Shown here: positions 32,910 to 48,407 of the stretch, in pieces
How the letters are laid out: each line of letters opens with the position of its first letter
Position numbering within the stretch: the stretch's first letter is position 1
Virus record (IMG/VR): IMGVR_UViG_3300035661_000095
Location: 1 to 48,407 of that record
DNA length: 48,407 nt
Strand: one strand, 5' to 3'
Source: a virus
Notes under the pieces: model-generated
Seen by the model: the letters and a program-made list of their open reading frames with translations, nothing else
Database searches by the model: none
What the model was told of the DNA's origin: nothing
Made by a program: the position numbers and the translations under genes

Positions 32910-33722
32910 TCATTCTTCTGAAGAAGTCTTGGGTTGACGTTTTGCGCGCGTTTTCTTCACTGGACCCGTCCTCTTTGCGGGGACAGTCTTCTTTGCGGGT
33001 GGTGACTTTTTGACCTTCTTCTCAACTGCTGGTGCGAGCAGAGCGGCCACCGCTTCGATTTCGGCTTCTTGCTCAGCCTTCTCCTCTGCTTCCTGCTTTT
33101 CCTTCATCACTTTAACCATGCACTCGAGGCGAGTGCGAATTTCAGGGGTTTGCATCCACATATCTTCACCACGGGTGATGCGATCGAACTCTTCACGTGA
33201 TAGGAACGGGATGTAGACATCCTCAGCAAGCGCTTGGAACCATTTAACGGTTGCTTCGAGCTCGGATACCAGTTCGTTGCCCTTACCGATGAGACCACCG
33301 TTGAAGTTGTGGAACATCATCATGCAGTTGTCGTTGACGACCATTTCGTCACCAGCCAGGAAGATTAGCGTGCCCAGGGAGTAGGCAGTGGCTTCAAGAA
33401 CGGTAACGATTCGCGCCTGGGAGTTACGCATTGCGTTAATCAGTTGGACACCGGTATCGATCTGACCACCTGGAATGTTCAAGTGAATGAAAATGGTATC
33501 GGATGGATTGGCAAGGGTGATCCTGTGGATCATGTCTGTGTAACCTTCAGCCTCACCAACTGGCTTGCTCAGATAGAAGTGAACATGCTGGGCAGTGAAT
33601 GTTTGCTCAAACACTCGGAATGGTTTCTTTCCCACGTCGGCGAATGGGAACTTAACTTCAATCTCGTCTTCATCCTCGTCATGGTTACTTCCAGGTTTGC
33701 TGTAAACATATTTGTAAGTCAT
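32910..33722 (-). CDS. ClpP-like serine protease with basic C-terminal tail
   Basis: Start 33722 is set by AAAGGAG 6 nt upstream; an earlier start at 33746 lacks one. The 270-residue protein has the ClpP fold motifs: FIHLNIPGGQIDTG, nucleophile S115 in ATAYSLGTLIFLAG, and H138 in MMMFHNFNGG. A long acidic helix and a tail rich in Lys, Pro and Arg (from residue ~235) are unusual for ClpP. A late promoter (TATAAATG) lies just upstream. Phages use ClpP-type enzymes as prohead proteases, so a capsid-maturation role is plausible; host-ClpX partnership is the alternative. Confidence 0.87.
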   Translation of the reverse strand: MTYKYVYSKPGSNHDEDEDEIEVKFPFADVGKKPFRVFEQTFTAQHVHFYLSKPVGEAEGYTDMIHRITLANPSDTIFIHLNIPGGQIDTGVQLINAMRNSQARIVTVLEATAYSLGTLIFLAGDEMVVNDNCMMMFHNFNGGLIGKGNELVSELEATVKWFQALAEDVYIPFLSREEFDRITRGEDMWMQTPEIRTRLECMVKVMKEKQEAEEKAEQEAEIEAVAALLAPAVEKKVKKSPPAKKTVPAKRTGPVKKTRAKRQPKTSSEE

Positions 33723-33837: not shown

Positions 33838-34162
33838 GGGACTTTGTTACAAGGTTACCTACCCCGTCGCGAACCCTGGATTAGAGGGCGAGCGCGAATT
33901 GCATGTTTACGTTTGCATTTACGTTTTGGCAATGGATTACGTCCATAACTTCGGATAGCCGTCACATTATACTTGTCCGTGAGTCGAAGCCTGGTCAGGC
34001 CCATTAGGAATCACCCGCCTACGTAGCTTGTTACTAACTCAATGCCCCGGAGCCCGCGACAAAGTGAGTCAACTACGATCGTCGACTGATGATTTCTGGT
34101 GGACCTGGGCGGAATCGAACCGCCGTGTTCCCGTCGTTCCCATGAAACAGTTTACTATCATT
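33838..34162 (-). ncRNA. ssrA: Circularly permuted tmRNA (ssrA)
   Basis: Read leftward, the acceptor piece comes first and the coding piece second, the reverse of ordinary ssrA. The acceptor piece has a perfect T arm (GGCGG-TTCGATT-CCGCC, 34124-34108) and ends CAGGTCC-A-CCA at 34097. After 94 nt the coding piece begins at 34002 with GGGCCTG, which pairs with CAGGTCC over seven positions including a G3-U70 wobble, the alanine identity element, with A73. It continues CAGGCTTCGACT, the tmRNA D-loop signature, and includes the tag frame at 33916-33881 and a helix after it (CGCUCGCCCU/AGGGUUCGCG). tmRNA with SmpB rescues stalled ribosomes and tags unfinished proteins. Exact mature ends are not determined, and I could not resolve helix P2. 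No SmpB gene is seen in the window. Confidence 0.92.
33881..33916 (-). other. tmRNA proteolysis tag frame (A)ANVNMQFALAL
   Basis: From the resume codon GCA (33916-33914) the frame reads A-N-V-N-M-Q-F-A-L-A-L and stops at TAA (33883-33881). It opens GCA AAC like E. coli (tag (A)ANDENYALAA) and shares the FALA/YALA core. The last residue is Leu instead of Ala, and acidic residues are absent. Confidence 0.88.
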
Positions 34163-34167
34163 GTCCG

Positions 34168-34175
34168 TATTTATC
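34168..34175 (-). promoter_or_regulatory. T4-type late promoter for the tmRNA (GATAAATA, minus strand)
   Basis: GATAAATA reads leftward with a predicted start near 34162, about 38 nt before the T arm of the acceptor piece. It implies late-phase expression of the tmRNA. Confidence 0.6.
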
Positions 34176-34248: not shown

Positions 34249-34656
34249 ATGACCCTAGACCATATCATTTACGCGGCGGGTTTGTTTGACGGAGAGGGCA
34301 CTGTTACCTTAACGAAGATGAATGCTGCCAATCAATTTCGAGCGCCAGGAGTATCGTTGTCCAGCACGACTTACACCCTGGTTGACTTCATGAAGTCAAC
34401 CTTTGGTGGACAAATTATCAAACTTAAGCGCGCCAAGAGTCAAGGACACAAACAAGCTTGGCATTGGCAAACCTATCGTGGGTCTGCCATCAATGTGCTG
34501 GAGCAAATTTCTCCATACCTTCGTGAGCCTGAAAAACGACGCAGGGCGTTACTGATCCTTGAGCAATACAAGGTAGTAACGCCCCGCAATGGTAAGTACA
34601 CACCAGAACAGATTGAGCTCAAAGAGGCCTTTGAAGCCACCTTCTTTGCTCAATAA
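34249..34656 (+). CDS. Single-motif LAGLIDADG homing endonuclease
   Basis: Start 34249 has AGAAGGAAA upstream. The 135-residue protein has one LAGLIDADG helix, YAAGLFDGEGTVTL (residues ~8-21), followed by a beta sheet pattern and helices (LVDFMKSTFGGQI, INVLEQISPYLREPEKRRRA). One-motif members act as homodimers. It lies beside the tmRNA gene, the kind of RNA-gene neighbourhood that mobile nucleases favour. Its A/T-rich codon use differs from the flanking genes. Confidence 0.88.
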   Translation: MTLDHIIYAAGLFDGEGTVTLTKMNAANQFRAPGVSLSSTTYTLVDFMKSTFGGQIIKLKRAKSQGHKQAWHWQTYRGSAINVLEQISPYLREPEKRRRALLILEQYKVVTPRNGKYTPEQIELKEAFEATFFAQ

Positions 34657-36321: not shown

Positions 36322-36605
36322 TGAAATTCTCCAATGGAGAACACTTCACCGTCAGCAGCTCGCAAGCCTTCTGGCGCATAGTTGATCAGGATCTGATCCT
36401 GATTGCGGAACACGACAAAGCGGCCGCTACGGTCGTTTGGAAAATTCGGCTGTGGAGCCAGCGTAACACACACAGCCTCAGCATGCTTTAGCCAGTGGCC
36501 TAACGCAACGGAGAAGCAGCGCATGCCAGTGAGGATTGCATCCTCACTCCCTGATGTTGTATCGTTTTGTGTGTACGTAGAAATCGTCTTGTCTGTTGTG
36601 TTCAT
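36318..36605 (-). CDS. Hypothetical protein
   Basis: The 95-residue protein contains GMRCFSVALGHWLKHAEAVCVTLAPQPNFPNDRSGRFVVFRNQDQ. It overlaps both neighbours by 4 nt, indicating coupled translation with the Acb1-like gene upstream. There is no membrane segment and no recognised family. Confidence 0.65.
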   Translation of the reverse strand: MNTTDKTISTYTQNDTTSGSEDAILTGMRCFSVALGHWLKHAEAVCVTLAPQPNFPNDRSGRFVVFRNQDQILINYAPEGLRAADGEVFSIGEFQ

Positions 36606-37132
36606 TTTTCCGTTCCCTCGTTTTTGGCCCAGCTCAAATCAAGATCCTCGCCATATTCTTCAACGATTTCCAGCTTCTTGACAACGCTCTTGATATCTGG
36701 TAGTTCTGCTTCGTCTAAATCACCAATGTCATATGACAGTGTGACGTGTGTTTTGTATTCAGGGAAGTCATACGTCGCTTGATGTTCATCCATCAGTTGT
36801 TCATGGCGTTCGTTCAGCTTGTCACACTTGAACTCCATTACGAGGCAACGTGTTCCCTCTTCTCCGTCCTGTTCGCCTTTTGATTCCCACACATCCAAGC
36901 CAGTCGGCTTGCCGATCCACGGTGGATCGATCTTACCTAATGGCTCGTAATCAGGGCAATGCTTGCGGCTGTACAGTAAAGTGCAGTGCATCTTTGACGC
37001 TGCTAACCCGTTAGGGATGTCATTGTCTTTGATGTACTTTTCGATCGCATCCTTTGTGTCCTGGCTGAACTTTACGGCTGCGTATGTTCCACTTGGTGTG
37101 TGTTTTTCTTGTAGTAACTCATCGAGGGTCAT
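36602..37132 (-). CDS. acb1: Acb1-like anti-CBASS phosphodiesterase (2H family)
   Basis: The 176-residue protein has both HxT motifs of 2H phosphoesterases, H49-C-T51 and H129-V-T131. The surrounding sequence is characteristic of the T4 57B/Acb1 group: GTYAAVKFS, KMHCTLLYSRK, ERHEQLMDEHQATYDFPEYKTHVTLSYDIGDLD. Acb1 degrades cyclic di- and trinucleotide signals made by CBASS, preventing host suicide. Length and layout match the T4 protein. It starts an overlapping run of small genes ending at the ATP-grasp operon. Substrate range cannot be read from sequence. Confidence 0.85.
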   Translation of the reverse strand: MTLDELLQEKHTPSGTYAAVKFSQDTKDAIEKYIKDNDIPNGLAASKMHCTLLYSRKHCPDYEPLGKIDPPWIGKPTGLDVWESKGEQDGEEGTRCLVMEFKCDKLNERHEQLMDEHQATYDFPEYKTHVTLSYDIGDLDEAELPDIKSVVKKLEIVEEYGEDLDLSWAKNEGTEK

Positions 37133-37149: not shown

Positions 37150-37422
37150 TTATGTCACCGACTCAAAACCGGTGAGGCCCTCTTTCAAAGTGTTGGGCAC
37201 CACAGCTTGGCCATACATCCAATGTTGCGTTGTCATAACATGGCCTTTGCGAACGTATTTATCAACATAGTTTTTGAAGTGACTGAAGTGATAGGGCTCG
37301 TCGACCTGAATCACATATCCTTCAATCTCACCACCGTCAGCTTCACGCTTCGCTTTGTACTCTGCGTACTTCGTCTCAATCATCTTGCGGTCATACGGAC
37401 CCCAGTAGATCACTGGACTCAT
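37150..37422 (-). CDS. Hypothetical protein
   Basis: The 90-residue protein begins MSPVIYWGPYDRKMIETKYAEYKAKREADGG and contains YHFSHFKNYVDKYVRKGHV. Its start overlaps the DHFR stop by 4 nt. A GATAAATA on the minus strand at 37263-37256 lies inside it and could act as a late promoter for Acb1, but it may be chance. Not recognised. Confidence 0.65.
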   Translation of the reverse strand: MSPVIYWGPYDRKMIETKYAEYKAKREADGGEIEGYVIQVDEPYHFSHFKNYVDKYVRKGHVMTTQHWMYGQAVVPNTLKEGLTGFESVT

Positions 37423-38132
37423 TTGCGTTTCCAGATGGTGAAGCGCAAGTCTGGTGTCTTGTCGTTGACGAACTGCTGCTCCATGTTGAAGTGCTTCAAC
37501 GTATAGTTGGTTGGAAAAAACCGGTCCGCGTCAACCTCTTTGTTGACAACCGTGATGTACAGCGTGTTCGCCTTAGCGATTCCTTCACTGTAGATCCGCT
37601 CGCCACCGATGAAGAACACCGTCTTATTCTCAGCGTCCTCAAATGTCAGATGCTTGTCGACCTCACTGATCGACTTAACTGCGATTGCATTATCCTTGGG
37701 CAGCGGCGATGACGTTACCACAAAGCACTTGCGGCCAGGCAAAATGCTCTCGTCACCCTTGCTGCCGAGGTGGTTGACCAAGTCATCGTAAGTTGCGCGA
37801 CCCATCACACAGATGTGGCCCTCTGTCTTTTGTTGGAACCACTTGAAGTCAGCAGTATAGTTCCACGGGATCTTGCCGTCCTTGCTGAACCCACCACAAA
37901 GGTCTACTGCTACAATGCACGCGTACTGCTGGCGCGGGCTCTTGTTAATCAGCTGCTGTGTGATTCGTGCCCAGCGATCCGCCTCCATCTGAGCGCGCAT
38001 TGCGGCCTGGTGCTGCTCATACGCTTGCCGTTGTTGGTGGGCATGCTGAGCATGAGCCTGTCGAGCAGCCTGCTCAAACGCGGCGCGGCGCGCTGCTTCT
38101 TCTTGTGTAGCGGTGTCTTGTTCGGTCGTCAA
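37419..38132 (-). CDS. frd: Dihydrofolate reductase with Gln/Ala-rich N-terminal extension
   Basis: The start appears to be TTG at 38132, with GGAG 7 nt upstream and a TTGA overlap with the preceding stop. Residues ~1-65 are a charged Ala/Gln/His helix (EEAARRAAFEQAARQAHAQ). The DHFR domain starts around residue 70: YACIVAVDLCGGFSKDGKIPWNYTADFKWF, VMGRATYDDL, CFVVTSSPLP and VFFIGGERIYSEG. The enzyme regenerates tetrahydrofolate consumed by thymidylate synthase, also encoded here. Phage DHFRs usually lack such an extension; internal Met45, Met49 are alternative starts but have no clear site. Confidence 0.9.
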   Translation of the reverse strand: MTTEQDTATQEEAARRAAFEQAARQAHAQHAHQQRQAYEQHQAAMRAQMEADRWARITQQLINKSPRQQYACIVAVDLCGGFSKDGKIPWNYTADFKWFQQKTEGHICVMGRATYDDLVNHLGSKGDESILPGRKCFVVTSSPLPKDNAIAVKSISEVDKHLTFEDAENKTVFFIGGERIYSEGIAKANTLYITVVNKEVDADRFFPTNYTLKHFNMEQQFVNDKTPDLRFTIWKRK

Positions 38133-41927: not shown

Positions 41928-41935
41928 TATTTATA
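41928..41935 (-). promoter_or_regulatory. T4 consensus late promoter (TATAAATA, minus strand)
   Basis: A perfect T4 late octamer overlaps the TAA stop of thyA. It lies about 68 nt before the next ATG at 41860. Confidence 0.7.
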
Positions 41936-43688
41936 CAGCCACATCCATTTTTAGCACGGGGTGTGACGTGTAGTTGACGATCCTGAAATCTTCATACTTG
42001 AAGTCGTCAATGTCCGTAATTTTCCGTGCAAATTCAAACGTTGGGGATGGCAGAGGATCGTGAGTTAGTTGCACCTCCAGTTGCTCTATGTGGTTCTCAT
42101 AGATGTGAACGTCGCCGCCGTTCCAAATGAAATCACCTGGAACCATGTTTGCTACCTCACATAGCATCCGGAGGAGGATGCTATATTGAACGATGTTGAA
42201 TGGGACGCCGAGGCCGATATCGCACGACCGCTGATTCAACATCAGCGACAACTCGTACATCGGCACGTCTGTTTCTTTCCAGAAATCAGCGCCTTTGTGC
42301 TGGTTTTCACTGATGTCTTTGATGACTTCTTGGCCGTGTAAGGCGACCGCATGTTTTGTCATCTCTTCAACAGTCCGTGGGCGTGCAAAGCACTGGAACG
42401 TGTAATGGCACGGTGGCAGGGCTTGCTTTCCGTTCGCAACATTGTCGTCGAATGAGACGGAGGTGTCAGGCAGGACTGCGGGGTTCCATGCTGTGACGAT
42501 CATTCGACGGTCGTTCGGGTTGTTCTTCAGAGAATGGACCAGATTGGCGATCTGATCGATTGGCAGGCGATATCGAGCAACACTCCCTGGTGGAATATCA
42601 AGGTATTGAAAAGTAAAACCTTTGTGATGAGTGTATTGACCGGTTAGTACTTTCCGAATGATGGGTCCTGACAGTCCGTGAATCGACGCGAACTGATCAA
42701 TTGATAGACTTGTGAATTTACGACCGTCAGGTGAGGTGGCAATGAATGGTCGAGGATTTCGACGATACAGTGTATTGTGTTGGGTGCTCAGCCACACGCA
42801 TGTCGTCTTAGAGTAGCAATTAGATTCGTAATAATCCTTATCAAGTTCGTACGCTAAGGGGTTCAGCCGCTTGGTGTTCCAGCCTGGAATCCGTTTTACA
42901 TCACGTTGGAACGTTGCAAAGTTGTGCCAGTCAGGGTGTACGTGTACCCCGGCCCCGCCGTACAGAGCGTATTCTATTGTTGATGAATTGTAGCATCTAT
43001 CCAACATTTTATACCAATGGCGCTGCAATTGCTTTAGCATTGGGTCTGTCTTATCGAATTCGCCAAGATATCCAACACCAGAGACTCGAGGCAAGAGCAC
43101 ATCAATAATATGTCCACGCTTAATCACGCTGCGTCGCACATTCGTTTTTATATAGCCCGTCGCCTTGAACTGTACGGTGTATGTTTTTTCTTTTCCTGAT
43201 TTTCCGTCATGTCTGATAACCAACAATTCACCACATTCTTTTGTACGGTGGTGGCTTCCAACGAAATCATCAGCTGTTTGCTCTGGCTCAATAAGTTCAC
43301 GTGTGGCTAGTGCAGCCACACAGGGGCTGATCCGGCGCGGTTGCACAAATACCACACTGGGTTCGACCGCCCAGTTTCTCCACTGGTCGCCGTAGACGGG
43401 CCCTAGCTCACCTTCCTTATTTGCCCATTCTCGCCAGATGGTAACGCCCTGACGTTCCAACTCTCGGGAACTTGTATTTGCCTGCAGATACCACAGCAGC
43501 TCAATAATGATCGAACGAGTATGGATTTTCTTGGTTGTCAACATCGGGATTGTGCCGTCACGGAGATCAAACTTCATTTGATGACCGAACACAGACAGCG
43601 TGTCTACGCCTGTGCGATTTGACTTGCGCACACCGCGGGTAAGGGCTGTTTTAACCAGCTCTAAGTATTGCGTATCGTGGAAAGTCAT
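41931..43688 (-). CDS. thyA: Thymidylate synthase with in-frame homing-endonuclease-like insertion
   Basis: The 585-residue frame begins as ThyA through GPVYGDQWRNW (residue 106). It resumes around residue 374 with RLPIDQIANLV, NNPNDRRMIVTAWNP, catalytic C427 in LPPCHYTFQCF, QRSCDIGLGVPFN (486-498) and HIYENHIEQL. All dUMP-binding and catalytic residues are present, and N498 marks a true thymidylate synthase rather than a dCMP hydroxymethylase. The intervening ~267 residues belong to a different family. Without them the enzyme would be ~318 residues, near T4 Td (286). Whether the insertion stays in the protein or is removed from RNA or protein is unknown. It makes dTMP from dUMP. Confidence 0.92.
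   Translation of the reverse strand: MTFHDTQYLELVKTALTRGVRKSNRTGVDTLSVFGHQMKFDLRDGTIPMLTTKKIHTRSIIIELLWYLQANTSSRELERQGVTIWREWANKEGELGPVYGDQWRNWAVEPSVVFVQPRRISPCVAALATRELIEPEQTADDFVGSHHRTKECGELLVIRHDGKSGKEKTYTVQFKATGYIKTNVRRSVIKRGHIIDVLLPRVSGVGYLGEFDKTDPMLKQLQRHWYKMLDRCYNSSTIEYALYGGAGVHVHPDWHNFATFQRDVKRIPGWNTKRLNPLAYELDKDYYESNCYSKTTCVWLSTQHNTLYRRNPRPFIATSPDGRKFTSLSIDQFASIHGLSGPIIRKVLTGQYTHHKGFTFQYLDIPPGSVARYRLPIDQIANLVHSLKNNPNDRRMIVTAWNPAVLPDTSVSFDDNVANGKQALPPCHYTFQCFARPRTVEEMTKHAVALHGQEVIKDISENQHKGADFWKETDVPMYELSLMLNQRSCDIGLGVPFNIVQYSILLRMLCEVANMVPGDFIWNGGDVHIYENHIEQLEVQLTHDPLPSPTFEFARKITDIDDFKYEDFRIVNYTSHPVLKMDVAV
42570..43370 (-). mobile_element. HNH-type homing-endonuclease-like insertion inside thyA
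   Basis: Residues ~107-373 of the thyA frame read TADDFVGSHHRTKECGELLVI, then HWYKMLDRCYNSSTIEYALYGGAGVHVHPDWHNFATF. ELDKDYYESNCYSKTTCVWLSTQHNTLYRR follows. This is the signature of a common phage family related to HNH nucleases ('W..ML.RCY...YGG.GV.V...W..F'). A modular DNA-binding segment closes it (SLSIDQFASIHGLSGPIIRKVLTGQYTHHKGFTF). It is in frame with both thyA halves and has no stop. There is no intein start Cys/Ser or terminal His-Asn, and too little non-coding room for a group I core outside the ORF. Confidence 0.8.
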
Positions 43689-43867
43689 TGTTGCACCTCA
43701 AACAGCATGTCTTCTCGTGTCCATTTCTTCCAGCTGCCGACCATGTTGTCAACGGGGGTTACTTCAACAATCTCGTCGATCTTACCACTCTTCAATTTGT
43801 TCTGAGCGCGGCGGCCCGTTTTGCGAACCTCCACGCCTTCGAATACGTACGTTTGCTCAGATGTCAT
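43685..43867 (-). CDS. Small hypothetical protein between thyA and Thg1-like gene
   Basis: The 60-residue protein overlaps both neighbours by ATGA junctions, so it is almost certainly translated. It begins MTSEQTYVFEGVEVRKTGRRAQNKLKSGKIDEIVEV, a beta-strand-rich basic domain. Unrecognised; its place suggests coordinated expression with ThyA. Confidence 0.7.
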   Translation of the reverse strand: MTSEQTYVFEGVEVRKTGRRAQNKLKSGKIDEIVEVTPVDNMVGSWKKWTREDMLFEVQQ

Positions 43868-44604
43868 GCTGCTACCTTGTCGATATACACGTGCTGATCT
43901 ATGTATGCTCGATCTTGTGTGAAGATTGGAATCTCCTCATCTACAGCCAAGCGTAGATCACCGTCGTTGACGACGCACGTTCCGCGCTTCATCCACGTTG
44001 GTAGGTCGTTCCAGTTGACGCCCTTTTCCAGCATCAGCATGTCCTGCACTTCGCTGTTGTTCTTAGCGTGCATTTGCTTCTGAGAGAAGTGGTAGTGCCC
44101 AAGCATTTGAATACTGTTGCGGGAGGCATCCTGTTGACGCCAGAGGAAGTTGTTTGTCGCTTCTTCCTTCGGAATGTTGAATGCTCGTGCGTCAAACTTC
44201 GCAAAATCCTCTGGAGCGCGCAGCTCATTCCGGCGAAACGCGCAGTTGAAGGCGTTGGCAGTGGCTGTCGCAATCACAGAGACGATCTTTTGAACATTGT
44301 AGCCAAACCACGCTTGCGTTTCAAGCGTGTCGTAGTCGCGCAGTAGTAGCGTAATTTCGTCCGATTGAGTGTAGCCCAGTACGCATCCCTGCGCTTCTTT
44401 GACGGCTGCCACGGTAGCTGCAACCATTGCGGTGTGCATTGTTTCACTGAACGGAACGACACCTGTGTCGGGGAGGTTCCGTGCGTAAGTGTGGAAGGCT
44501 TTACCGTCAAGGCGAATGATGACGGGTGTTCGTTTCATGAGGAAGTCTTTGGAAACTGCCTCGTACCCCTTCATCCTATCGCCTAGGGAGTCTTTTGTAG
44601 TCAT
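43864..44604 (-). CDS. Thg1-like 3'-5' nucleotidyltransferase (tRNA-His guanylyltransferase family)
   Basis: The 246-residue protein has the family core: PVIIRLDGKAFHTYARNL (metal-binding D33), GCVLGYTQSDEITLLL (second acidic cluster, S81-D82-E83), and FDARAFNIPKEEATNNFLWRQQDASRNSI. These enzymes add nucleotides in the 3'-5' direction. Eukaryotic Thg1 adds G to tRNA-His, while bacterial and phage Thg1-like proteins repair 5'-truncated tRNAs. A role in repairing host tRNA cleaved by anti-phage nucleases is plausible but inferred. AAGGATA lies upstream of the start. Confidence 0.9.
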   Translation of the reverse strand: MTTKDSLGDRMKGYEAVSKDFLMKRTPVIIRLDGKAFHTYARNLPDTGVVPFSETMHTAMVAATVAAVKEAQGCVLGYTQSDEITLLLRDYDTLETQAWFGYNVQKIVSVIATATANAFNCAFRRNELRAPEDFAKFDARAFNIPKEEATNNFLWRQQDASRNSIQMLGHYHFSQKQMHAKNNSEVQDMLMLEKGVNWNDLPTWMKRGTCVVNDGDLRLAVDEEIPIFTQDRAYIDQHVYIDKVAA

Positions 44605-46618: not shown

Positions 46619-48133
46619 TTAATCCTCGTAGTCGTCCGTATCGTTTGGATCGAACGTGTACCGCTCCACCATTTCTCCGCTCGGGTCCATCGAGCGGATC
46701 TCCACTTCATACCCCCACAGAGCAGCAACGTGCTCCAGGGTCCTACGAGTATCATCCTCGTCCAGCAGGTGACGTTTGAACGACGTGTGCTCCAGAATCA
46801 TCTTCCGGTCGCCGCGAACATCGACGTCTACCACATTGATATACGGCAGTCGGTTGTTGACGTTCTGTTGCTCTGCGAGCTTCTCGCGAATGATTCGGTA
46901 ACCTTCGTCATTCTGAATTGCCTCTACCTGGATCTTCGGATTCTCGTCGTCGTCCAGCATGTAGAACAGCTGGAAGTCACGGATCACCTTCGGAGACAGA
47001 TATTGCAGGATGAAGCTCTCGTCCTTGAAGTTGTACGCAGCGTACTGGCACTCAGCGAGCCAGTCTTCCTTGCCGCACAGATCAGGGAACCAGCGACGGT
47101 CTTCGTCTGTCGGTTCCAGGCACATCCGCTTGATGTCCTTGAACATTGCCCAGCCGAGTGCGTACGGGTTGATCGCAGCCATCGGCCGTTGATTGACAAC
47201 GCCAGAGTGGCTCTCGAAGAACTCCAGCATGAATCCGTCGGTAACCAGTCCCCGCTCGTACATCTGCTCAAGAATGTTGTAGTGCGTGAACGTAGCCCAG
47301 CCCTCGTTCATGATCTGCGTCAGCATCTGAGGGTAGAAGTACTGCGCGACCTTGCGGACGATTCGCAAAATCTCACGCTTCCACTGCTCGAGATTCGGAG
47401 CATGCTTCTCAATGAAGTACAGGATGTTCTCTTCAGATTCCTTTGGAAACTTCTCATGCTTACGCTTGACAACCTCGTTCTTGGTTGTAGGAATCGTCCG
47501 CCACATGTCGTCAAACGTTGATTCCTCATGCTCAATCCGAGCCTTCTCTCGCGCCTTCAGCTTTTCCTTCGACAGCTGCGGCGGCCGCTTGTAACGGTCG
47601 ATCCCTTGATGACGAAGCGCGTGGGCGTGATCGAGCACCTTTTCCACTTCCTGCTCCCCGTACTTTTCTTCGCATTCGCGAATGAAGTGCTTAGCGTACG
47701 ACAGGTAGTCGATGATCCCTTCAGCGTCAGTCCACTGCTTGAAGTGGATGTTGTTCTTGAAGAACGAATTGTGACCGAAGCAAGCGTGCGCCATCACCAA
47801 GCACTGCATCATCAGCGTGTTCTCTTCCATCAGATAGGCGATGCCAGGATTGCTGTTGATCACAATCTCGTAGGCGAGGCCCATGTGACCGCGACTGTAC
47901 TTGTCCGACTCCGCAACGAATTGCTTGCCGAACGACCAGTGAGAGTAGTACACAGGCATGCCGACTGCGGAGTACGCATCCAGCATTTGCTCACTGGTGA
48001 TGATTTCGATCTGGTTTGGGTAGTACGAAATCTTGAATTCGTCCTCCGCGATCTTGCGGATTTCGTCGTACGCTCGGTCGATGTCTTCAAACGACCAGTC
48101 CTTACCTGCTTCGAACTTGGTTACTTCTGTCAT
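46619..48133 (-). CDS. spoVR: SpoVR family protein (YcgB-like)
   Basis: Start 48133 is preferred (GAGAGGAAG upstream, TGATG overlap with the YeaH stop); GTG 48136 is an alternative. The 504-residue protein is full length for SpoVR. It has YYPNQIEIITSEQMLDAYSAVGMPVYYSHWSFGKQF, ENTLMMQCLVMAHACFGHNSFFKNN, NEGWATFTHY and GVVNQRPMAAINPYALG. Bacterial SpoVR/YcgB is linked with the PrkA/YeaG kinase and YeaH in stress and stationary-phase responses; its biochemistry is unclear. Here it directly follows YeaH, so the bacterial module is preserved. Confidence 0.95.
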   Translation of the reverse strand: MTEVTKFEAGKDWSFEDIDRAYDEIRKIAEDEFKISYYPNQIEIITSEQMLDAYSAVGMPVYYSHWSFGKQFVAESDKYSRGHMGLAYEIVINSNPGIAYLMEENTLMMQCLVMAHACFGHNSFFKNNIHFKQWTDAEGIIDYLSYAKHFIRECEEKYGEQEVEKVLDHAHALRHQGIDRYKRPPQLSKEKLKAREKARIEHEESTFDDMWRTIPTTKNEVVKRKHEKFPKESEENILYFIEKHAPNLEQWKREILRIVRKVAQYFYPQMLTQIMNEGWATFTHYNILEQMYERGLVTDGFMLEFFESHSGVVNQRPMAAINPYALGWAMFKDIKRMCLEPTDEDRRWFPDLCGKEDWLAECQYAAYNFKDESFILQYLSPKVIRDFQLFYMLDDDENPKIQVEAIQNDEGYRIIREKLAEQQNVNNRLPYINVVDVDVRGDRKMILEHTSFKRHLLDEDDTRRTLEHVAALWGYEVEIRSMDPSGEMVERYTFDPNDTDDYED

Positions 48134-48407
48134 CACGGCTTCCTCTCGAACAGTTTGACGAAAACAGGATACACGTTTTCGTGACTGGTGATCAACGCAG
48201 CACTCAGGTTCCGTTTCGTATCACTGAGCGGCTTGTACACACTCCACAAATTGTGTCCTGTCTGCTCAGTGGCGTAGTCAGATTCATACTCAGAGTTTAC
48301 CTGCACGTACGCATAGTACTGAACGATCGGCAGCAGCTTGTTGACAACCGTATCAGTGACAAGCTCGTTGTCCTGACCCCAGTTGTCGCCGTCCGAAGAG
48401 TGGGCGA
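48133..48407 (-). CDS. yeaH: YeaH/DUF444 family protein (C-terminal part, gene continues beyond the window)
   Basis: The frame is open to the right edge of the window. The visible ~90 residues read AHSSDGDNWGQDNELV, KLLPIVQYYAYVQV, NLWSVYKPLSD and ENVYPVFVKLFERKP. This matches the C-terminus of YeaH (E. coli-type 'QASDGDNW...LLPLVQYYAYIEI...IYPVFRELF'), a von Willebrand-like protein encoded with the kinase PrkA/YeaG. Its stop overlaps the SpoVR start. A PrkA gene would be expected just upstream, outside the window. Confidence 0.88.
   Translation of the reverse strand, partial: AHSSDGDNWGQDNELVTDTVVNKLLPIVQYYAYVQVNSEYESDYATEQTGHNLWSVYKPLSDTKRNLSAALITSHENVYPVFVKLFERKP

What the first reader, a model, noticed from the sequence alone, without database searches (positions are those of the whole stretch)
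33838..34162. Phage-encoded circularly permuted tmRNA
The acceptor end (T arm, CAGGTCC-A-CCA) is transcribed before the coding end (GGGCCTG...CTTCGACT, tag frame), the opposite of standard ssrA. The two ends form a complete 7-bp acceptor stem with the G3-U70 wobble required for alanylation. Two-piece tmRNAs are known from alpha-proteobacteria, some cyanobacteria and some beta-proteobacteria, and ordinary tmRNAs occur in some phages. A permuted one in a T4-like phage is uncommon and suggests capture from a host. It could sustain ribosome rescue late in infection or redirect tagged proteins.
Basis: partly seen in the sequence, partly recalled or inferred. Interest (0 to 1): 0.92.

Follow-up and report, generated by a model that had tools for sequence, protein, structure and literature searches.

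The report
Phage gene for a two-piece tmRNA
A large bacterial virus carries its own copy of tmRNA, the RNA that frees stuck ribosomes, in the rearranged two-piece form; this is real and conserved in its relatives, but such virus-borne copies are already known, so the new points are details (an odd tag ending and a nearby protein-cutting enzyme gene).

Summary
On the minus strand the window encodes a circularly permuted (two-piece) tmRNA. Rfam RF04321 matches end to end (72.9 bits, E 3e-12). The acceptor stem is 7/7 with G3·U70, the T arm is intact, CCA is encoded, and a tag frame and terminator follow. The same gene, at the same place, is in 14 of 18 related phage contigs (up to 350 kb). In the other four the contig ends 59-734 bases upstream of the neighbouring gene. 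Acceptor and T stems covary.

It is not rare. Two-piece tmRNAs in phages are published (Melnitz and others, PMC9004378), and 114 IMG/VR contigs share its exact 26-nt T-arm/acceptor sequence. "T4-like" and "recent capture from a host" are not supported: it is an old feature of a large-phage clade with a betaproteobacterial-type tmRNA.

Most likely it is processed by host enzymes, charged with alanine, and works with host SmpB (none found in the phage records) to rescue ribosomes during infection. Unusual points: the tag ends in Ala-Leu (59 of 60 phage tags compared end in Ala), and in this clade the gene always lies just upstream of a ClpP-like protease gene. A new member of a known kind.

The parts
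34167..34175 (-). promoter -10-like element GATAAATAC; relatives have TATAAATAC at the same place, five of them with TTGAC 17-18 nt upstream
   Evidence: the consensus scan finds no full sigma-70 promoter in the window itself
34097..34159 (-). acceptor piece of the permuted tmRNA (transcribed first), ending in encoded CCA
   Evidence: RF04321 match
34108..34124 (-). T arm GGCGG-TTCGATT-CCGCC
34101..34107 (-). acceptor stem 3' strand CAGGTCC
   Evidence: pairs 7/7 with 33996-34002, G3-U70
34003..34096 (-). 94-nt internal transcribed segment, folds as an extension of the acceptor stem; to be cut out
33996..34002 (-). acceptor stem 5' strand GGGCCTG, start of the coding piece
33954..33958 (-). 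CTATC, pairs with GATAG at 34159-34155 (outer part of P2, joins the two pieces)
33881..33916 (-). tag reading frame, GCA resume codon to TAA: ANVNMQFALAL*
33838..33880 (-). 3' part of the coding piece with GGGGTA..CCTTGTAAC, a sequence that recurs after the tag in related phage tmRNAs
33812..33837 (-). intrinsic terminator hairpin (11 pairs, then T-rich tail)
32910..33722 (-). ClpP-like protease gene directly downstream on the same strand; Ser115, His138, Asp187 kept
34249..34656 (+). small homing-endonuclease-like gene (PHROG 5046; motif AGLFDGEG), divergent from the tmRNA, not detected in the relatives

Best explanation
This is a working phage-borne permuted ssrA gene. One transcript carries the acceptor piece first, then a 94-nt spacer, then the coding piece (shown by sequence). 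Host RNases cut out the spacer (inferred), leaving two RNAs held together by the acceptor stem and P2. Host alanyl-tRNA synthetase charges it through G3-U70 (inferred from the conserved identity pair). Host SmpB carries it into ribosomes stalled on broken mRNA, such as those left by host mRNA decay or RNase-based defences, and it releases them while adding the tag ANVNMQFALAL. The benefit to the phage is a continued supply of free ribosomes. The gene is an old, vertically kept part of this phage clade.
For: Whole-model covariance hit. In 11 distinct clade sequences the acceptor stem is 7/7 and G3-U70 is kept. In the nine that align without gaps all 108 pair cells form standard pairs, 7 of 12 pairs change on both sides, and the covariation score is 0.54 against 0.15 in shuffles (0/500). 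The resume-codon context GTAAATGCAAACG, stop codon, post-tag sequence and terminator are kept. Presence in 14 of 18 related records at the same site; the other four end 59-734 bases upstream of ClpP. No SmpB in any of 19 records, so the host must supply it.
Against: No expression data. This copy scores lowest of its clade on RF04321 (72.9 against 97-126 bits). The inner part of P2 pairs poorly (several non-standard pairs). The promoter matches the consensus poorly. The tag ends in Leu instead of Ala. In leave-one-out sequence profiles, however, it is within the clade's range.
Confidence: 0.75

Rival explanations
1. The window's copy is decaying: it was functional in the clade but lost a strong promoter, part of P2 and the degradation end of the tag, perhaps after the homing endonuclease gene landed beside it.
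For: Lowest RF04321 score of 15 records; poor inner P2; no consensus promoter although five relatives have TTGAC-N17-18-TATAAATAC; tag ends -AL; a homing-endonuclease-like gene, found in none of the relatives, begins 90 bp upstream.
Against: All elements needed for charging and for the tag are intact. Leave-one-out profile scores are not outliers (acceptor piece 36.9, clade 10.6-42.1; coding piece 33.2, clade 26.2-74.7). Its acceptor and T stems differ from those of most relatives by compensated changes.
Confidence: 0.15
2. Tag-and-protease module: the phage tmRNA tags proteins and the neighbouring phage ClpP-like peptidase, driven by host ClpX or ClpA, degrades them or changes the fate of tagged proteins.
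For: The tmRNA lies 103-1152 bp upstream of the ClpP-like gene on the same strand in 14/14 relatives and in the window. A second, distant phage group shows the same order at about 1 kb (L071, L082, L104). The catalytic triad is invariant in 14 homologues and the fold matches ClpP.
Against: Gene order of the whole block is conserved, so adjacency may be plain synteny. XacN1 has both genes far apart, and RAS14 has ClpP but no tmRNA hit over the cut-off. Only 3 of 80 other phage tmRNA loci have a strong ClpP-like gene near. Each gene has its own terminator or promoter-like signals, and no ClpX/ClpA-type unfoldase was found.
Confidence: 0.12
3. Decoy: the RNA mainly binds and occupies host SmpB or alters host trans-translation, and the tag is irrelevant.
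For: A tRNA-like-domain-only tmRNA of phage DS6A is reported to inhibit tmRNA (PMC4131195; PMC11915505).
Against: The tag frame, resume context and stop codon are kept here, and all ten other distinct clade members keep open tags ending in Ala; a decoy would not need them.
Confidence: 0.08

Closest known systems
Betaproteobacterial two-piece tmRNA (Rfam RF01850; merged model RF04321)
   Same: Order of pieces, T arm, acceptor stem with G3-U70, resume region, length; best of the clade-specific models for the window and for most of its relatives
   Different: Carried by a phage; below the RF01850 cut-off (73.7 against 84); tag ends -ALAL instead of -ALAA
Two-piece ssrA of OM43 phage Melnitz and relatives (PMC9004378)
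   Same: Permuted ssrA in a large lytic phage that shows no sign of integrating
   Different: Melnitz ssrA is alphaproteobacterial in type and has a glutamine riboswitch; no Rfam riboswitch is near the window's copy
tmRNAs of huge/jumbo phages (PMC7162821, PMC11242549)
   Same: Large phages with tmRNA among translation genes
   Different: Those reports do not describe a ClpP-like gene beside the tmRNA in the passages read
Permuted tmRNA of Xanthomonas phage XacN1 (found here, no feature annotated in the record)
   Same: Permuted tmRNA in a 385-kb phage that also has the ClpP-primase pair
   Different: There tmRNA and ClpP are about 49 kb apart; tag ANANTFDYALAA

Membership tests
Permuted (two-piece) tmRNA | Acceptor piece encoded upstream of the coding piece | tested here: met
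   RF04321 1-213/213 on the minus strand
Permuted (two-piece) tmRNA | 7-bp acceptor stem with G3-U70, then A-CCA | tested here: met
   7/7, G3-U70; covaries in the clade
Permuted (two-piece) tmRNA | T arm with TTCGA loop | tested here: met
   GGCGG-TTCGATT-CCGCC
Permuted (two-piece) tmRNA | P2 helix joining the two pieces | tested here: inconclusive
   outer 5 bp GATAG/CTATC pair; inner part has several non-standard pairs
Permuted (two-piece) tmRNA | Tag frame with Ala resume codon and stop | tested here: met
   GCA...TAA, ANVNMQFALAL*
Permuted (two-piece) tmRNA | Processing into two stable RNAs | not testable with these tools
   needs RNA from infected cells
Permuted (two-piece) tmRNA | Works with SmpB | not testable with these tools
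   no SmpB gene in 19 phage records; host SmpB would be needed
Proteolysis tag of the -LAA type (typical of tmRNA, not defining for it) | C-terminal Ala-Ala (or at least Ala) | tested here: not met
   ends Ala-Leu; 59 of 60 phage tags compared end in Ala
ClpP peptidase (neighbour gene) | Ser-His-Asp triad on a ClpP fold | tested here: met
   S115, H138, D187 invariant; PF00574 46 bits; Foldseek best hits all ClpP, model of moderate confidence
T4-like phage | T4-type core gene content and order | tested here: inconclusive
   T4-type topoisomerase subunits, but NAD-dependent ligase and only about 33% identity to known phages; the window is a 48-kb fragment

The most novel reading that the evidence does not exclude
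The phage carries its own tag-and-destroy pair: a tmRNA with an altered tag end (-ALAL) next to its own ClpP-like peptidase, so that proteins from rescued ribosomes are steered away from, or into, a phage-modified Clp protease instead of the host's normal ssrA pathway.
Probability: 0.1. Interest if true: 0.75.

Novelty: new member of a known kind. Interest (0 to 1): 0.35.

Why it matters
Ribosome rescue by phages is still untested in nearly all cases. This clade offers a conserved, always-present permuted tmRNA beside a ClpP-like gene, so the question whether phages use tmRNA for rescue only or also for directed proteolysis becomes testable.

Tried and rejected
DNA similarity of the locus to cultured phages: no match. 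Exact repeat of the window's tag sequence in IMG/VR: none, so the -AL ending could not be confirmed in a second assembly. ClpP relatives in bacterial genome contigs to name a host: none, so the host stays unknown. T4 late promoter: TATAAATA matches the T4 late consensus, but five relatives also have a -35 TTGAC at the right distance, so a sigma-70-like promoter is at least as likely; not decided. Replacement of the window's tmRNA by one from another phage: its identity to other phage tmRNAs (up to 68%) hardly exceeds that to its clade (up to 63%) and is inflated by the shared 26 nt used for fetching; not concluded. The 26-nt match as a tRNA 3' end: rejected, nearly all are tmRNAs. PHROG's name 'RNA ligase' for the upstream gene at 36602-37132: Pfam calls it Acb1, an anti-CBASS protein.

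Full report
What is there. On the minus strand the window holds a circularly permuted tmRNA gene. The acceptor piece (34159-34097) comes first, then a 94-nt spacer, then the coding piece starting at 34002 with the tag frame at 33916-33881 and a terminator at 33837-33812. Rfam's RF04321 matches over its whole length (72.9 bits, cut-off 47, E 3.3e-12). RF01850, the betaproteobacterial form, gives E 7e-22 but stays under its cut-off. ARAGORN finds nothing, as for two of ten other distinct loci of the clade.

Relatives. Two neighbouring proteins brought in 18 related IMG/VR records of 18-350 kb. Fourteen have the permuted tmRNA (97-126 bits), ten distinct sequences apart from the window's. The four without it end 59, 357, 502 and 734 bases upstream of the ClpP-like alignment, while the tmRNA lies 103-1152 bases upstream of the ClpP start in the others, so they do not count clearly against it. 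Gene order is DHFR - Acb1 - tmRNA - ClpP - primase - topoisomerase where these were tested. In all 11 distinct sequences the acceptor stem is 7/7 and G3-U70 is kept. In the nine that align without gaps, 7 of 12 stem pairs change on both sides, all 108 cells are paired, and none of 500 shuffles reaches the covariation score.

How it likely works. Shown: order of pieces, stems, identity pair, CCA, tag frame, terminator, conservation. Inferred: cutting by host RNases, charging by host alanyl-tRNA synthetase, use of host SmpB (no SmpB in 19 records), rescue of ribosomes stalled during infection. Five relatives have a sigma-70-like promoter TTGAC-N17-18-TATAAATAC right in front of the gene; the window keeps only GATAAATAC at 34175-34167 and no full consensus.

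What is unusual. (1) The tag is ANVNMQFALAL. Of 60 phage permuted tmRNA tags that could be read here, 59 end in Ala and only this one in Leu. From general knowledge, the last residues of the tag are what ClpX reads, so this tag may be a poor degradation signal; that is an inference, and an error in the assembly cannot be excluded (one search found no second copy). (2) A ClpP-like gene always follows. It has the Ser-His-Asp triad and a ClpP fold by prediction (mean pLDDT 72). A second, unrelated phage group shows tmRNA about 1 kb upstream of a ClpP-like gene. But synteny alone could explain the first case, only 3 of 80 wider loci (55 with at least 2.5 kb downstream) show it, and in XacN1 the two genes are far apart. 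(3) A homing-endonuclease-like gene lies beside the tmRNA only in the window.

What is known. Buchholz and co-authors described a two-piece tmRNA in the OM43 phage Melnitz and 53 distinct two-piece tmRNAs among cultured phages (PMC9004378). Huge phages are known to carry tmRNA and SmpB (PMC7162821); a Sinorhizobium jumbo phage has one (PMC11242549); the tmRNA database holds 79 phage sequences and explains RF04321 (PMC11915505). Here, the exact 26-nt T-arm/acceptor string of the window was found in 114 IMG/VR contigs; of 80 fetched, 74 are called permuted tmRNA by ARAGORN. Permuted tmRNA was also found in Xanthomonas phage XacN1 and Sinorhizobium phage Phosso, with no tmRNA feature in the stretches of the records looked at.

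Verdict. A new member of a known kind, with two details worth a test.

Noticed in passing
L070, L077, L090, L097, L111, L125, L132 (phage permuted tmRNA loci): These phage tmRNAs encode tags of 27-30 residues sharing the core KVSMGRGFRF, e.g. AKTSTKDVVKVSMGRGFRFARGTEALAA, instead of the usual ten or so. The core was not found in the longer open frames of the fetched loci. Why a tag should be so long and conserved is unexplained.
   Followed up: partly
L063, L103: Two further long tags share another core (ANADTF(D/E)FS...FTGNTV...ALAA).
   Followed up: no
L047 (XacN1 37231-37530) and L048 (Phosso 349596-350198): Cultured jumbo phages carry permuted tmRNAs that have no feature in the stretches of the GenBank records viewed; in Phosso the match spans 603 bp, so its spacer is probably long.
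   Followed up: partly
L082 near 6988 (-), and L071 spacer: In L082 the acceptor piece is followed by GGGCCTG but no coding piece was recognised, possibly a broken copy; in its near relative L071 the spacer is 398 nt and holds a small open frame.
   Followed up: no
L033/L035 (same tmRNA in two records): T loop is GGCGGTA instead of TTCGATT and the spacer is only 5 nt, yet acceptor stem, G3-U70 and tag are kept.
   Followed up: no
window 36602-37132 (-): Gene named 'RNA ligase' in PHROGs (phrog_755) is an Acb1-type anti-CBASS protein by Pfam (1e-33).
   Followed up: yes
window 43864-44604 (-) and 46619-48136 (-): The phage also encodes a tRNA-His guanylyltransferase (Thg1) and a SpoVR-like protein.
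   Followed up: no
window 41931-43688 (-): Thymidylate synthase frame interrupted in its middle by an HNH-endonuclease-like stretch read in frame, possibly an intein.
   Followed up: no
window 33881-33925 (-): The start of the tag frame looks like a short imperfect tandem repeat (ACGTAAATGCAA / ACGTAAACATGCAA), which might explain the unusual tag.
   Followed up: no
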